DNA of 64,000 bases from Erythrobacter sanguineus (GTDB lineage Bacteria; Pseudomonadota; Alphaproteobacteria; Sphingomonadales; Sphingomonadaceae), in contig CAMCUB010000017.1 in assembly GCA_945878845.1 (NCBI GenBank), positions 1 to 64,000 on the forward strand. The letters run 5' to 3'. Numbering within the stretch: position 1 is the stretch's first letter; every line of letters starts with the position of its first letter. The notes below the pieces were generated by a model, which made no database searches, was not told where the DNA came from, and saw nothing but the letters and a program-made list of their open reading frames with translations. Below, one piece after another: positions 1,974 through 20,497 of the stretch. The position numbers and the translations under genes are program-made.

Positions 1974-1995
1974 CGGTCGCGCTGATGCGCGACCG
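1974..1995 (+). terminator. hairpin after the PAS-like gene
   Basis: GGTCGCGC (1975-1982), loop TGAT, GCGCGACC (1987-1994), extended by one C-G pair. It starts 6 nt after the stop codon. No T-tract follows, so it may be a weak or Rho-assisted terminator or an RNA-stabilising hairpin. Confidence 0.4.
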
Positions 1996-4181: not shown

Positions 4182-5171
4182 GTGATGCGCGTGCCTGAGC
4201 TTGCCGCAGTGCTTGCCGCATTGCTTGCGGCCCCGTTCGCCGAACCTGCCCCCGAAGCACCGCCCGCGATCGACTACGCCGCCGAACGCGCTGTCATCGC
4301 GCGCTATCAGGACGCCAATCAGCGGCTGCAGGACGCCGGGTGGCGCCTCGCTCGCGGCAATTCCGCCTTCTGCCCCAAGGTGATCCCGAGCATCGGGCTG
4401 CAATTGCAGGACATGGCGAGCTACGGCGGGCCCGACATCGGCCGCGCGGCGCTGGGTCTCAAGCGCGATTTCGCGGTCAATGCCGTCGCTGCGGGCTCGC
4501 CCGCCGCGCTCTCGGGCGAATTTGCGCGCAACCGCGAGATCGTGCGGCTCGAAGGTTTCGACCCCAATGACTGGCCCGCCAAACCGCCGATCGACTGGGA
4601 CCGCACCACCCGCGCGCATGCCCATATCGACGCGATGCTGGCCGAACACGGCGGCATCACCATCGCCTTTGAGGGCGGCGGCGAGGCGCGCCTCGTCCCG
4701 GTCGAAGTCTGCGCCAGTCGCTTCGATCTGGACGCCGCCGGAGAGCTCGCCTTTGCCGACGGGGCGCGGGTGATCTTCCCGATGCTCTCGTCCGCCTATG
4801 GCTATGAAGAGCCGCTCTTCGCCGCGCTCCTCGCGCACGAGCTGGCGCACAACGTGCTCGGCCATGACGCGTGGCTCGACCGCAACGGGCGCCGCGCTAA
4901 GCACGTGCGCCGGATCGAGCGCGAGGCCGACCGGCTGGTGCCGTGGTTGCTCGCCAATGCGGGCCATGATCCCGAGGCAGCCGTGCGCTGGATGACCCGT
5001 TGGGGCAAAGAAAACGACACCGGGCTCAAGCTGCGCCGCACCCACGACGGCTGGGACGAGCGCGCAGACATGATGGCCGCCGAGGTGCCGCTGGTGCGCG
5101 CGGCTATCGCGGCGGAGGGCAAGGCCGACTGGTCGGTGCGTTTCAAGCGCGAGATCGACGTGCCTTTGTGA
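4182..5171 (+). CDS. exported M48-like zincin with PDZ-like segment
   Basis: A 329-residue predicted exported protein starting 10 bp after the DsbA-like gene, so probably co-transcribed. The start is GTG 4182 or ATG 4185, giving a short hydrophobic leader. Residues about 65-165 resemble a PDZ-like substrate module (AVNAVAAGSPAALSG). The zinc motif HELAH at 219-223 with a downstream EREADRL supports a gluzincin of the M48 kind. The ordering (PDZ-like then zincin) suggests a regulated membrane-associated or periplasmic peptidase. The substrate is unknown. Confidence 0.8.
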   Translation: MMRVPELAAVLAALLAAPFAEPAPEAPPAIDYAAERAVIARYQDANQRLQDAGWRLARGNSAFCPKVIPSIGLQLQDMASYGGPDIGRAALGLKRDFAVNAVAAGSPAALSGEFARNREIVRLEGFDPNDWPAKPPIDWDRTTRAHAHIDAMLAEHGGITIAFEGGGEARLVPVEVCASRFDLDAAGELAFADGARVIFPMLSSAYGYEEPLFAALLAHELAHNVLGHDAWLDRNGRRAKHVRRIEREADRLVPWLLANAGHDPEAAVRWMTRWGKENDTGLKLRRTHDGWDERADMMAAEVPLVRAAIAAEGKADWSVRFKREIDVPL

Positions 5172-5173
5172 TG

Positions 5174-5260
5174 CGCCGCCGCCTCCGCGGCGGCGTCCTC
5201 GGTGCTGTTCCCGCCCCTTTCAGGGCCGGGGCACCTGCGGCTCCCGCGCGTGCGCTCGCG
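5174..5260 (+). repeat. 3'-end stem-loop repeat, copy A
   Basis: Two bases after the stop at 5171: stem CGCCGCCGC (5174-5182), loop CTCC, stem GCGGCGGCG (5187-5195), then the conserved tail TCCTCGGTGCTGTTCC (5196-5211) and further similarity around GGCACCTGCGGCTC (about 5229-5242). The same arrangement occurs at 7398-7435 and, on the minus strand, at 19489-19452. The remaining bases up to 5361 show no gene. Confidence 0.8.
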
Positions 5261-5361
5261 GCCGCGATGCGGCCGAGCTTGCGCCAGGCCGTTGCCCTGC
5301 CAAGGCGGCGCGACCGAATAGCAGTGCCGTTTGCGACGAAATGAGTTAGACCAGTGCGACT

Positions 5362-6588
5362 ATGGCAGTGCTCCAGATCCAGGCAGCGCCGTTCTTCGCG
5401 AGCAAGAACCGGGCGTTCTGGAACCTCCAGCTGGCGGGCTGGGGCGCGGCGTTCCTGCTGCGCGCGGTCTCGGCGCTCGCCAACCAGCAGCCCTTCGACA
5501 TCCTCGCACTGATCCTGGTGACGACCATCACCGGCTTTTCGATCAGCCTGATCCTCTCGGTGATCTACCGCCAGCTGATCCAGCAGCAGCCGCTGGTGAC
5601 ATGGGGCGTGACGGCGGTGGTGCTGTTCTTCGCCGTGCTGCTCCACGCCTCGATCGATACCTGGGTGCAGGGCGTCTATTACGCCGCGACCCGCGACACG
5701 ACCTTTGCGCAGCGCCTGATCGGCCTGCTCTACCTGCCCCTGACGCTGCTTGGCGGGTGGAGCGCGCTCTATTACGCGATCAACTTCTTCCTCACCGTGG
5801 AACAGCAGGCCGACCGATTGGAGCGATTGGAGGCCCAGGCCACCGCCGCGCAGCTCGCCATGCTGCGCTATCAGCTCAATCCGCACTTCCTGTTCAATAC
5901 GCTCAATTCGATCAGCACGCTGGTGCTGCTGAAGCAGACCGAGCCCGCCAACGCGATGCTCACGCGGCTTTCGGGCTTCCTCAGGCACACCCTGATCGCC
6001 GAGCCCGGCAGCCAGGTCAGCCTCGCGCAGGAGATCGAGACGCTCCAGCTCTATCTCGATATCGAGCGCATGCGCTTTGAAGAACGCCTGCGCACCCAGT
6101 TCGAGATCGAGGACGCCGCGCTTCCCGCCCAGCTGCCCGCGATGCTGCTGCAACCGCTGGTCGAGAACGCGATCAAATACGCCGTCAGCTCGCAGGAGGA
6201 AGGCGCGCAGATCGCGCTCACCGCGCGCGTGATCGGTGAAAGGCTGCGGCTGACGGTCGAGGATACGGGCCCGGGGGCGGACGACACTCCGCGCGATCCC
6301 GCCGCACCGCCGGTGCCAGGCCGCCCGGTCTCGACCGGCGTCGGCCTCGCCAATATCCGTAATCGCCTTGCACAGGCCTATGGCGACAACCACCTGTTCG
6401 AAACCAAGTCCGAAGCTGGGGGCGGCTTCACCGTGCTGATCGAAATTCCCTTCACCCGCGCCGACAGAGCCGGGGAAGTGGCAGCACCCGCCGCGCCAGA
6501 AATCGGGCCAGATATCGGGAACCCCGCGGGCGGGAGCGACAATATCGTCCCCCTCAACCCCCCTAAAGTTATCGGAACAACCGCATGA
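5362..6588 (+). CDS. LytS/YehU-type sensor histidine kinase
   Basis: A 408-residue membrane kinase. About four hydrophobic segments occupy residues 20-150, followed by the His_kinase domain with the phosphoacceptor His175 in the family motif LNPHFLFNTLN and an HATPase_c domain (N-box VENAIKYAV, G-box GVGLANIRNRL). There is no periplasmic sensor domain, so the signal is probably sensed in or near the membrane. The gene overlaps the response regulator by 4 bp (ATGA), so the two are translationally coupled. A proline-rich tail of about 45 residues follows the ATPase domain. Confidence 0.93.
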   Translation: MAVLQIQAAPFFASKNRAFWNLQLAGWGAAFLLRAVSALANQQPFDILALILVTTITGFSISLILSVIYRQLIQQQPLVTWGVTAVVLFFAVLLHASIDTWVQGVYYAATRDTTFAQRLIGLLYLPLTLLGGWSALYYAINFFLTVEQQADRLERLEAQATAAQLAMLRYQLNPHFLFNTLNSISTLVLLKQTEPANAMLTRLSGFLRHTLIAEPGSQVSLAQEIETLQLYLDIERMRFEERLRTQFEIEDAALPAQLPAMLLQPLVENAIKYAVSSQEEGAQIALTARVIGERLRLTVEDTGPGADDTPRDPAAPPVPGRPVSTGVGLANIRNRLAQAYGDNHLFETKSEAGGGFTVLIEIPFTRADRAGEVAAPAAPEIGPDIGNPAGGSDNIVPLNPPKVIGTTA

Positions 6589-7391
6589 CCATCAGAACCA
6601 TCCTCGTCGACGACGAGAAACTCGCCATCCAGGGCCTCCAGCTGCGCCTCGCGCCATTCGAGGACGTCGAGATCATCGACACCTGCGCCAATGGCCGCGA
6701 GGCGATCCGCAAGATCAAGACCGAGAAGCCCGATCTCGTCTTCCTCGACATCCAGATGCCCGGCTTCGACGGCTTTTCTGTCGTCAAGGGCGTGATGGAG
6801 ATCGAACCGCCGCTGTTCGTCTTCGTCACGGCCTACGAAGAACACGCGATCCGCGCCTTCGAGGCCAATGCCGTCAACTACCTGATGAAGCCGGTCGACG
6901 AGCAGAAGCTGGCCGACACCGTCGAGCGCGTGCGCCAGCGCCTCGCCGAGAAGAAATCGGCCGAGGATGCCGGGCAATTGCTCGACGTGCTGGCCGAGGT
7001 GGCCCCTGACCGCGCCGCCGATTTCGTCGAGACCACCGCGCCTGCGGCCGAAAGCGCCGACCGCTTCGAAAAGCTCATCAACGTCAAGGACCGCGGCCAG
7101 ATCTTCCGCGTTGAGGTCGACACCATCGAGCATATCGAGGCCGCGGGCGATTACATGATCATCTCGACCGGCGACAACTCGCTGGTGCTGCGCGAGACGA
7201 TGAAGGACCTCGAGCGCCGCCTCGACCCGCGCAAGTTCCAGCGCGTCCACCGCTCGACCATCGTCAACCTCGATCTGGTGCGGCAGGTGAAGCCCCACAC
7301 CAACGGCGAGTGTTTCCTGGTGCTGGATTCAGGTGCTGAGGTGAAGGTGAGCCGTTCGTACCGCGATGTGGTGGCGCGCTTCGTGCATTGA
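6585..7391 (+). CDS. LytTR-family response regulator
   Basis: A 268-residue partner of the preceding kinase. The receiver domain (1-120) has acidic residues Asp9/Asp10 and phosphoacceptor Asp55 (FLDIQMPG), with a Lys in the NYLMKPV motif. A linker of about 40 residues leads to a LytTR DNA-binding domain (160-268; FQRVHRSTIVNLD, VKVSRSYRD). Such regulators bind direct repeats upstream of target genes; targets cannot be named here. A 4-bp overlap with the kinase shows an operon. The stop codon is followed closely by stem-loop repeat copy B. Confidence 0.95.
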   Translation: MTIRTILVDDEKLAIQGLQLRLAPFEDVEIIDTCANGREAIRKIKTEKPDLVFLDIQMPGFDGFSVVKGVMEIEPPLFVFVTAYEEHAIRAFEANAVNYLMKPVDEQKLADTVERVRQRLAEKKSAEDAGQLLDVLAEVAPDRAADFVETTAPAAESADRFEKLINVKDRGQIFRVEVDTIEHIEAAGDYMIISTGDNSLVLRETMKDLERRLDPRKFQRVHRSTIVNLDLVRQVKPHTNGECFLVLDSGAEVKVSRSYRDVVARFVH

Positions 7392-7397
7392 TGTGTG

Positions 7398-7435
7398 CGG
7401 GGGCGCCTCCGCGCCCCCGTCCTCGGCGCTGTTCC
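7398..7435 (+). repeat. 3'-end stem-loop repeat, copy B
   Basis: Stem CGGGGGCGC (7398-7406), loop CTCC, stem GCGCCCCCG (7411-7419), then TCCTCGGCGCTGTTCC (7420-7435), starting 6 nt after the response-regulator stop. The stem sequence differs from copies A and C but pairs perfectly, whereas the loop and tail are constant apart from one base. Confidence 0.8.
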
Positions 7436-7530
7436 TCCGCTACGCTCCGGGCGCCTGCGGGGCGGCCGCGTGGCCTTGCGGAGCCTGCGGCTCCGGGCCA
7501 TCGCGTTCCATCTTGGATTGACCTAACCCC

Positions 7531-7636
7531 TCGTCATTGCGAGGAGCGTAGCGACGAAGCAATCCATGGACTGAAGCGCTATTCCAAGCGCTAGGGCCAT
7601 GGATCGCCGCGGGCCGATCGGCCCTCGCGATGACGA
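7531..7636. repeat. palindromic repeat, family 1, copy 1
   Basis: Left arm 7531-7570 begins TCGTCATTGCGAGGAGCG and ends ATCCATGGA; right arm 7597-7636 is its imperfect reverse complement (CCATGGATCGCC ... CGCGATGACGA). The centre carries a small hairpin AGCGCT-ATTCCA-AGCGCT (7575-7592). A related copy lies at 8967-9073. The right arm contains the ATG at 7630, an alternative start for nadC. Confidence 0.8.
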
Positions 7637-19294: not shown

Positions 19295-19451
19295 CCCGCT
19301 TTATACTGTGTCTCATGTGTCTCCTGCTTCAGGAAACCGTGAGCCAGGCTGAACAAGCGGCCCAACTACCGACTCGGCAAGCGCAAGTACGGCTGCGCAG
19401 CAGCCGCGAGCGCACGCGCGCGAGCCGCAGGTGCCCAAGCCCGCAGGGCTT

Positions 19452-19489
19452 GGAACAGCACCGAGGACGCTCGCCCGGAGGGGCGAGCG
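19452..19489 (-). repeat. 3'-end stem-loop repeat, copy C
   Basis: Read on the minus strand after the PfkB-kinase stop: stem CGCTCGCCC, loop CTCC, stem GGGCGAGCG, then TCCTCGGTGCTGTTCC (19467-19452). Seven bases separate the stop and the stem. After the tail, AAGCCC-TGC-GGGCTT forms a second hairpin and GGCACCTGCGGCTC matches copy A. Confidence 0.8.
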
Positions 19490-19495
19490 AAAGAC

Positions 19496-20497
19496 CTAGA
19501 GACTCTCTTCCATCAGCTTGAGCATGTCCGCTTCCGGCCGCGGGCCGTAGTGCGAGATCACCTCCGAGGCGCAGATCGCGCCGCGCTTCAGGCACTGCGC
19601 CAGCGGCTCGCCCTTGGCGTAGCCGGAGAGGAAGCCAGCGGCGAACTGGTCGCCCGCGCCGGTGGTGTCGACCACCTTGGCAACCGGGACCGCGGCCACT
19701 TCGGCGCGCTCCCCGTGGGCGATGGAGACCGCGCCCTTCTCCGAGCGCGTGGCGACCAGCACCGGCACCTTGCCCGCGACCGCGGCGAGGCCGGTCTCGA
19801 AGTCGTCCTCGCCCGTCAGCGTGGCGAGTTCGCTCTCGTTGACGAACAGGATGTCGATCACGCCGTCCTCGATCATCGCGCGGAAATCGTCACCGTGGCG
19901 GTCGATCACGAAGCTTTCGGACGCGGTGAAGGCGATCTTGCGGCCTGCCTGGCGCGCGACCTCGATCGCGCGGCGCATGGCGCGGCGGGGCTCTTCGGGG
20001 TCCCAGAGATAGCCTTCGAGATAGAGGATCGCAGCCGACGCGATCAGATCCTCGTCCATTGCGGCGGCCGGCAGGAACTGGCCCGCGCCGAGGAAGGTGT
20101 TCATGGTGCGCTCGCCATCGGGCGTCACGAAGATCAGCACGCGGCCGGTGGCAGGCTCGCCGTCGCGGCCGGGCGTGTCGAAGTCGATGCCGGTGGCGCG
20201 CATATCGTGGCGGAATACGTTGCCGAGCTGGTCGTCGGCGACCTGGCCGATGAAAGCGCATTGCAGGCCGAGCGTTGCGAGCCCCGCCAGCGTGTTGGCC
20301 GCCGAGCCGCCCGAGACCTCGCGCGCGGGCGGCATGGCTTCGTAAAGCTCGTCGGCGCGCGCCTCGTCGATCAGGGTCATGCCGCCGCGGTTGAGCTGAA
20401 GCTCGGTGATCAGCTCCTCCTCGCAGGAGGCGATCACGTCGACCACGGCGTTGCCGATGGCGATGACGTCGTAACGGGGCTCAGTGGTCTCGGGCAC
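19496..20497 (-). CDS. PfkB-family kinase, probably adenosine kinase
   Basis: A 333-residue carbohydrate/nucleoside kinase. GTG 20497 is chosen because AAGGA lies just upstream and the protein then opens with YDVIAIGNAVVDVIA. Family motifs: GGSAANT near residue 63, and the anion-hole/catalytic signature DTTGAGDQFAAGF near residue 285 with the base Asp. In Alphaproteobacteria this subgroup is generally called adenosine kinase, producing AMP from adenosine; ribokinase-like specificity cannot be excluded. It is divergent from the EI24 gene across 128 bp. Confidence 0.9.
   Translation of the reverse strand: MPETTEPRYDVIAIGNAVVDVIASCEEELITELQLNRGGMTLIDEARADELYEAMPPAREVSGGSAANTLAGLATLGLQCAFIGQVADDQLGNVFRHDMRATGIDFDTPGRDGEPATGRVLIFVTPDGERTMNTFLGAGQFLPAAAMDEDLIASAAILYLEGYLWDPEEPRRAMRRAIEVARQAGRKIAFTASESFVIDRHGDDFRAMIEDGVIDILFVNESELATLTGEDDFETGLAAVAGKVPVLVATRSEKGAVSIAHGERAEVAAVPVAKVVDTTGAGDQFAAGFLSGYAKGEPLAQCLKRGAICASEVISHYGPRPEADMLKLMEESL

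What the first reader, a model, noticed from the sequence alone, without database searches (positions are those of the whole stretch)
5174..5211. Stem-loop repeat with covarying stem and constant tail right after stop codons (3 copies)
Seen directly: at 5174, 7398 and (minus) 19489 a perfect 9-bp stem encloses the loop CTCC and is followed at once by TCCTCGG[T/C]GCTGTTCC. The three stems differ in sequence but all pair fully: CGCCGCCGC/GCGGCGGCG, CGGGGGCGC/GCGCCCCCG, CGCTCGCCC/GGGCGAGCG. This is compensatory change, a sign of selection on RNA structure. Each copy begins 2, 6 or 7 nt after the stop of an unrelated gene, oriented with it. It could be a family of 3'-end or terminator elements or a mobile stem-loop that prefers stop codons.
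Basis: seen in the sequence. Interest (0 to 1): 0.75.

Follow-up and report, generated by a model that had tools for sequence, protein, structure and literature searches.

The report
Four-hairpin repeat behind gene ends
Erythrobacter and its relatives carry dozens of copies of a roughly 100-letter DNA repeat that can fold into four hairpins, sits mostly in one orientation directly behind genes, and at the same place in related species can carry a different middle hairpin between matching outer ones; it likely protects the 3' ends of transcripts from decay.

Summary
Confirmed, and larger than reported. The 38 bases are the first of four hairpins (H1-H4) of a roughly 100-base element. Two covariance models give 57 candidates in the window's genome, an Erythrobacter relative; R2 finds it in 73 of 296 genomes of the order, all in one family. 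All four hairpins show paired changes. A same-strand stop lies within -15..+50 nt of the start in 103 of 149 copies; mirrored at the other end, 17. Copies also lie in sense behind tRNA-Trp, tRNA-Thr and RNase P RNA genes. At one orthologous site 28 of 57 genomes keep a gene-oriented copy, one has a reversed copy, and the middle hairpin changes type at least 7 times on the tree, in three pairs between matching outer hairpins. No U-tract, target duplication or RAYT transposase was found. Best reading: a new REP/RIME-like family that likely acts as a transcript 3'-end (decay-blocking) element. Against: A.C outnumber G.T mismatches in H1, and 5 of 12 copies in GTA-like contigs are reversed. Function untested.

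The parts
4185..5171 (+). gene in front of copy 1 (328 aa, no Pfam or NCBIfam hit); stop TGA 5169-5171
   Evidence: gene calls
5174..5195 (+). copy 1, hairpin H1 (9 bp, loop CTCC)
5201..5235 (+). copy 1, hairpin H2, type A (GGTGC/GCACC with inner hairpin)
5236..5261 (+). copy 1, TGCGG + H3 + TCGCGG
5259..5275 (+). copy 1, hairpin H4
6585..7391 (+). gene in front of copy 2: LytTR response regulator; stop TGA 7389-7391
7398..7419 (+). copy 2, hairpin H1
7425..7455 (+). copy 2, hairpin H2, type A; type C at the same site in E. colymbi
7456..7481 (+). copy 2, TGCGG + H3 (GGCC/GGCC) + TTGCGG
7479..7495 (+). copy 2, hairpin H4 (same in E. colymbi)
19496..20497 (-). gene in front of copy 3: PfkB-family carbohydrate kinase
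19468..19489 (-). copy 3, hairpin H1
19430..19462 (-). copy 3, hairpin H2, type A with perfect inner hairpin
19404..19429 (-). copy 3, TGCGG + H3 (GCGC/GCGC) + TCGCGG
19390..19406 (-). copy 3, hairpin H4

Best explanation
It is a family of roughly 100-nt, four-hairpin, REP/RIME-like intergenic repeats that lie mostly in gene orientation directly behind coding and non-coding genes, and they likely work, once transcribed, as 3'-end elements whose first GC-rich hairpin would stop 3'-to-5' exonucleases and so set and stabilise the transcript's end. Shown: the anatomy (T-rich leader, H1 with CTCC or ATCC loop, TCCTC, H2, TGCGG, H3, GCGG, H4), paired changes in each hairpin, place and orientation bias, retention and module exchange at an orthologous site, and restriction to one family among the genomes sampled. 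Inferred: that the element is transcribed, that H1 blocks exonucleases, and that copies are kept because of this. How copies spread (perhaps by a transposase acting in trans, plus exchange between copies) is unknown.
For: Position and orientation: 103 of 149 R1 copies (27 of 40 own, 76 of 109 in relatives) start -15..+50 nt from a same-strand stop, 82 of these within 10 nt; mirrored, a convergent stop lies 10-75 nt beyond the model's 3' end in 17 of 149 (read from the lists). R2-only own copies: 9 of 17. Not tied to translation: sense copies behind tRNA-Trp in two genera and tRNA-Thr in two genomes, and 2-8 nt behind rnpB in 10 of the 56 genus genomes looked at. Structure: 33 double-change cells on A4, 11 of whose 12 rows are one orthologous site; H1 95.4% Watson-Crick against 60.7% with shuffled arms; H4 a perfect 7-bp stem in 83 of 139 copies measured, control 4 of 149. 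A hairpin of at least 8 bp within 60 nt of the stop at 80 of 96 element ends and 6 of 61 other ends. Retention: at the RR-nadC site a gene-oriented copy in 28 of 57 genomes, 27 of them also model matches. Precedent: 3' structures, the malE one among them, resist PNPase and RNase II and stabilise upstream mRNA (PMC5927463, passages); known REPs lie less than 20 bp from ORF 3' ends (PMC3733652, section 15).
Against: No transcript or decay data. In H1, A.C mismatches (37) outnumber G.T (16), the reverse of what selection on the sense RNA predicts; H4 leans the other way (19 G.T, 12 A.C). 46 of 149 R1 copies and 8 of 17 R2-only own copies do not follow a called same-strand stop; some of these follow tRNAs, RNase P RNA, other repeats or terminators, others are unexplained. 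Of 12 copies in nine GTA-like contigs (some near-identical), 5 are reversed against the flanking genes, and one RR-nadC site (L307) holds a reversed copy. Copies were lost or replaced many times at that site (at least 15 presence changes on the tree), so they are dispensable there.
Confidence: 0.48

Rival explanations
1. A selfish, non-autonomous mobile repeat whose insertion machinery targets gene 3' ends (perhaps T-rich stretches there); host function little or none.
For: Dispersed, 57 candidates in one genome; T-rich leader in front of H1; some copies directly behind intrinsic-terminator T-runs (L068, L267, L273); remnants and losses at the RR-nadC site; reversed copies in GTA-like contigs.
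Against: No target duplication (mean longest common word 4.54, permuted 4.66, 127 copies); no Y1 transposase (PF01797) in the genome; retention with paired stems at one site. No full copy found in the plasmid and phage records with the three searches tried.
Confidence: 0.27
2. A transcription terminator, most likely Rho-dependent (structured hairpins with C-rich single-stranded linkers, no U-tract).
For: Lies at ends of genes, often between convergent genes (56 of 149 copies have a same-strand gene in front and a convergent gene behind); canonical U-tract terminators are scarce at the ends sampled (7 of 93 control ends), so another way of ending is needed.
Against: No T-run behind H4; 10 of the 69 copies with a same-strand gene next have its start within 60 nt of the model end (lists); in L329 a copy lies inside a GTA structural gene cluster between same-strand genes, where strong termination would cut off later genes.
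Confidence: 0.15
3. A translation regulator like E. coli REPs within 15 nt of a stop codon, which stall ribosomes.
For: Many copies start within 10 nt of the stop (23 of 40 own, 59 of 109 others); E. coli REPs fewer than 16 nt from a stop are said to lower translation (PMC12306157, passages, citing an earlier study that I did not look up).
Against: Copies behind tRNA genes and rnpB, which are not translated.
Confidence: 0.1
4. A DNA-level element (cruciform or protein site, for example for gyrase or nucleoid proteins) between genes; orientation is a by-product.
For: Facing pairs of copies between convergent genes; H1 mismatches do not favour G.T over A.C.
Against: Strong orientation bias at stops (103 against 17 of 149), not expected of a symmetric DNA function.
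Confidence: 0.1

Closest known systems
CGTC-tagged and GTAG-tagged REPs (PMC3733652)
   Same: Short palindromic intergenic repeats with variable paired stems, dozens of copies, next to ORF 3' ends, between uni- and convergently transcribed genes; the CGTC type resides mostly in Alphaproteobacteria.
   Different: Four hairpins in fixed order (roughly 100 nt, not 20-40); no GTAG or CGTC-AT...CCA tag; orientation bias with the gene; interchangeable middle hairpin. A true CGTC REP lies next to copy 2 (7532-7566).
RIME and AB/C palindromes of Rhizobium (named in PMC2573895, passages; original paper recalled, not read)
   Same: Intergenic repeats with conserved secondary structure, dozens of copies, function unknown; RIME is called a mosaic element.
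   Different: Different clade; RIME anatomy is recalled only and kinship in sequence was not tested.
3' protective stem-loops, e.g. the malE-malF one (PMC5927463)
   Same: Stable structure behind a gene; there it resists PNPase and RNase II.
   Different: There the effect is measured; here only inferred.
Intrinsic (Rho-independent) terminators
   Same: GC-rich hairpin just behind genes.
   Different: No U-tract; the T-rich stretch is in front of the hairpin.

Membership tests
GTAG/CGTC REP | unpaired GTAG or CGTC tag at one end, next to the stem | tested here: not met
   H1 is flanked by a T-rich leader and TCCTC; CGTC REP stems start with A/T pairs and end in a CCA tail, while the outermost H1 pair is C-G in 128 of 174 copies
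GTAG/CGTC REP | intergenic, close to ORF 3' ends, between uni- or convergently transcribed genes | tested here: met
   compared
GTAG REP | RAYT (Y1 transposase) in the genome | tested here: not met
   PF01797 in 0 of 1 genome; control genomes rang in 5 of 14
RIME-like mosaic | several different palindromes in fixed order, intergenic, multi-copy | tested here: met
   the definition is recalled and sequence kinship to RIME was not tested
Intrinsic terminator | U-tract directly behind the hairpin | tested here: not met
   T at most 0.32 at each of the 14 positions behind H4
Protective 3'-end element | stable hairpin close behind the gene, in sense | tested here: met
   with the exceptions given there
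Protective 3'-end element | RNA 3' ends at the hairpin; longer half-life of upstream RNA | not testable with these tools
   needs Term-seq and rifampicin decay
Any Rfam 15 family | match at gathering score | tested here: not met
   none in the window; a permissive scan of four element loci gave 7 matches, all far below gathering scores
Transposon with target duplication | direct repeats at both ends | tested here: not met
   127 copies, no excess over permuted pairs

The most novel reading that the evidence does not exclude
A modular RNA 3'-end system: a clade-wide element kept at the ends of protein genes, tRNAs and RNase P RNA, in which the outer hairpins stay and the middle hairpin is exchanged like a cassette between two unrelated sequences (types A and C) at the same orthologous site, so that structure and place, not sequence, are inherited and selected.
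Probability: 0.3. Interest if true: 0.7.

Novelty: new variant of a known kind. Interest (0 to 1): 0.5.

Why it matters
It gives a clade-specific, easily searched 3'-end element in an alphaproteobacterial group where canonical U-tract terminators are scarce at the gene ends sampled, and a natural series of cassette exchanges at one site that makes the old question of what REP-like repeats do directly testable by Term-seq and deletion. The copies behind rnpB and tRNA genes separate transcript-end roles from translation roles.

Tried and rejected
Rfam match: none at gathering score; the permissive scan gave only unrelated sub-threshold matches. RAYT-driven REP: no Y1 transposase in the genome. 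Target duplications: none above permuted pairs; the ATTGA direct repeats around the own RR-nadC copy look like an isolated case. Stop-codon choice: TGA 51, TAG 32, TAA 15 in front of elements against 144, 66, 62 elsewhere, not pursued. Depletion of U-tract terminators at element ends: no difference (8 of 96, 7 of 93). G.T against A.C as a strand test: contradictory between H1 and H4. Plasmids and phages: no match except one 41-nt partial hit in a Bosea plasmid. My automatic classifier at the rnpB site (6 of 56) missed copies and was replaced by the covariance models. One search used a wrong spacer (9 N) and gave 3 hits; (8 N, 33 hits, control 2) is the correct one and some of its 33 are chance.

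Limits and rows dropped: the genome searches score only the best candidates of a first look (150 in the own genome, 11-22 per genome in wide searches), so copy numbers are lower bounds. L323 fell out of the tree (RR piece too short), L324 has no RR C-terminus. The 109 relative copies are model matches in 83 loci that I fetched, taken from R1 hits, not all hits there. Of 61 genus genomes, 58 loci were fetched and 57 RR sites were readable; types A, C, remnant and other were assigned by eye and checked with the models (27 of the 28 matched; L218, which has H1 only, did not; L307, labelled 'other', has a reversed match). Of 57 genomes with rnpB, 56 were looked at (G221, partial, was not).

Full report
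Observation. Chance expectation in the window is 0.03. The stop-to-stem distances are 2, 6 and 6 nt. In the whole genome (3.22 Mb, 57 contigs) the tail has 19 matches with at most one mismatch, the reversed control 0; 17 of the 19 show the same anatomy on both sides.

Anatomy. The 38 bases are only the start. Each copy runs on for roughly 100 nt: T-rich leader, H1 (9 bp, loop CTCC, in relatives often ATCC), TCCTC, H2, TGCGG, H3 (4 bp, GCGC or GGCC type), T[TC]GCGG, H4 (about 7 bp). On 16 aligned own copies 92.0% of cells pair, 69 cells carry changes on both sides (21.6 in shuffles), covariation score 0.436 against 0.106 shuffled and at most 0.089 when slid. The weak part is the inner stem of H2: 78.1% of cells pair, and two of its pairs fail in 10 of 16 copies. 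Over 174 of 177 copies with a recognisable H1 (own, relatives and the RR site; the sets overlap in at least one copy) 95.4% of pairs are Watson-Crick, 60.7% if arms are shuffled; the 9-bp stem is perfect in 32 of 39, 61 of 107 and 17 of 28. H4 is a perfect 7-bp stem in 83 of 139 copies (10 more of 149 gave none), the same search 60 nt further on in 4 of 149.

A broader family. After H1 and TCCTC come different H2 modules: type A (GGYGC-TGTT-inner hairpin-GCRCC), type C (GCTAGAC-GCGCAGC...GCTGCGC-CCGC and relatives such as GCTCACGCGACC...GGTCGCGTCGC) and a mixed type B. Model R1 (type A) finds 40 matches at E<=0.001 in the own genome, R2 (type C) 42, of which 17 are new, so 57 candidates; one R1 match has no H1. 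Across the order R1 finds it in 32 of 196 genomes, R2 in 73 of 296, all in the same family, 18 of 79 genera; in the class R2 finds it in 5 of 385, four in that family and one marginal match of E 7.5e-4. Named relatives of the window are Erythrobacter colymbi, E. donghaensis and E. cryptus, by exonuclease VII identity of 81-91%.

Place and orientation. With a gene finder of my own the element starts -15..+50 nt from the stop of a same-strand gene in 27 of 40 own R1 copies and 76 of 109 copies in relatives; a convergent stop 10-75 nt beyond the model's other end (H4 adds some 15-25 nt) occurs in 9 of 40 and 8 of 109 (read from the lists). R2-only own copies: 9 of 17. Of the exceptions, some follow non-coding genes in sense: tRNA-Trp in the own genome (5 nt) and in another genus (18 nt), tRNA-Thr in two genomes of a third genus, and RNase P RNA (4 nt). 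At the 3' end of rnpB in 56 genomes of the genus, a model match lies 2-8 nt behind the gene in sense in 10 (L373, L383, L393, L401, L403, L405, L411, L412, L415, L424), and at 50 and 66 nt in two more (L388, L400); one weak match (L413, 29.5 bits) overlaps the rnpB end on the other strand. Others follow another repeat or an intrinsic terminator; some remain unexplained.

One site through time. At the 3' end of the LytTR response regulator (copy 2) 57 genomes could be read. By eye 28 have an H1 element in gene orientation (12 type A, one of them, L225, with most of H2 gone; 14 type C; L319 with another H2; L218 with H1 only), 5 a remnant, 11 another palindromic repeat, 9 something else, and in 4 the regulator and nadC overlap with nothing between. 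The models match 27 of the 28, all in the regulator's orientation, some with further copies in tandem (L231, L305), and also one reversed copy at a site that I had labelled 'other' (L307). On a quick tree of 56 of these sites (gene sequences only; many branches weakly supported) types A and C need at least 7 changes among 26 rows and presence at least 15. Three pairs show the exchange clearly: L298/L299 (H1 0.96, H3-H4 0.98, H2 0.53 identity), L207/L213 (H1 1.00, H4 the same, H2 0.59) and L226/L228 (H1 and H3-H4 the same, H2 of different type). Over all pairs, different-type pairs are as alike as same-type pairs in H1 (0.70, 0.71) and H3-H4 (0.61, 0.61) and less alike in H2 (0.53, 0.75). Type C copies, 11 of 12 from this one site, covary strongly. 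Outside the genus the site is empty in Qipengyuania vulgaris and Pontixanthobacter (L134, L153). The other two window sites (gene 4185-5171, pfkB) show no copy in the five relatives each that I read.

Function. No T-run follows H4; the T-rich stretch is in front of H1. Canonical terminators are scarce at all ends sampled (8 of 96 with, 7 of 93 without an element). A hairpin of at least 8 bp within 60 nt of the stop is present at 80 of 96 element ends and 6 of 61 other ends, and at least two of those six (L034, L038) are R2 matches of the same family. In IMG/VR, 10 contigs matched the type A pattern; 9 carry the full element and one (L326) lies inside a called gene and looks like chance. L329 is a gene-transfer-agent cluster by Pfam (GTA-gp10, portal, capsid), with the element between same-strand tail-completion and tail-tube genes; the others were compared by gene lengths only and several are near-identical. 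Of the 12 copies in these 9 contigs, 7 lie directly behind a gene in sense and 5 (L325, L327, L328, L330, L331) are reversed. A copy inside such a cluster speaks for a role that lets transcription pass, as with the malE-malF structure (PMC5927463, passages), and against a strong terminator. Copies behind rnpB and tRNAs speak against a role tied to translation.

Against the RNA reading: in H1 A.C mismatches outnumber G.T (37 to 16), in H4 not (12 to 19); reversed copies exist; no expression data were available.

Known work. Papers seen: PMC3733652 (abstract, section 15, passages), PMC12306157 (passages), PMC5927463 (passages), PMC2573895 (passages), PMC2267715 (passages). Known REPs also sit less than 20 bp behind ORFs, so the place is not new; four ordered hairpins, orientation bias and cassette exchange are what differ. 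The rows listed by searches (8-12 rows each, titles and starts of abstracts) showed no description of this element; that is the extent of my literature check.

Verdict. A real, structured, clade-specific repeat family; likely a transcript 3'-end element; function and mobility unproven.

Noticed in passing
window 7532-7566 (+) and 9072 downwards (-): Two CGTC-tagged REPs (CGTCATTGCGAGGAGC...GCAATCCA, the type of PMC3733652), one 36 nt behind H4 of element copy 2.
   Followed up: partly
window 1974-1995 (+): Another perfect 9-bp hairpin of unrelated sequence, 5 nt behind the stop of the 592-aa gene.
   Followed up: no
L321 (G234) against L207 (own): The nearest RR-nadC row on the tree lacks the element; ATTGA direct repeats flank it in the own genome, as after a deletion between short repeats or an insertion with duplication.
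   Followed up: partly
L413, behind rnpB: An H1-like hairpin with the loop inverted (GGAG) directly behind rnpB.
   Followed up: no
L379, L394, L395, L396, L419, L421 behind rnpB: A second palindromic repeat, CCTA[CT]CGCT[TG]CGCTA...GAGG or like it, often with the same T-rich leader, takes the same place behind rnpB.
   Followed up: no
L325, L327, L328, L329, L330, L331: GTA-like clusters with elements near the tail-tube gene; five contigs hold a copy reversed against the flanking genes.
   Followed up: partly
G000 C49 11933/12133, C36 10580/10737, C2 44953/45109, C15 34455/34610: Facing pairs that join one type A and one type C-like copy; C16 38367/38523 and C31 4676/4830 are pairs of two type A copies. 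REP heterodimers are reported in PMC3733652.
   Followed up: no
L231 and L305, behind the response regulator: Elements in tandem: type A then type C in L231, three model matches in a row in L305.
   Followed up: no
G012:C1:2375473-2375728: Three type C matches in tandem within 260 nt.
   Followed up: no
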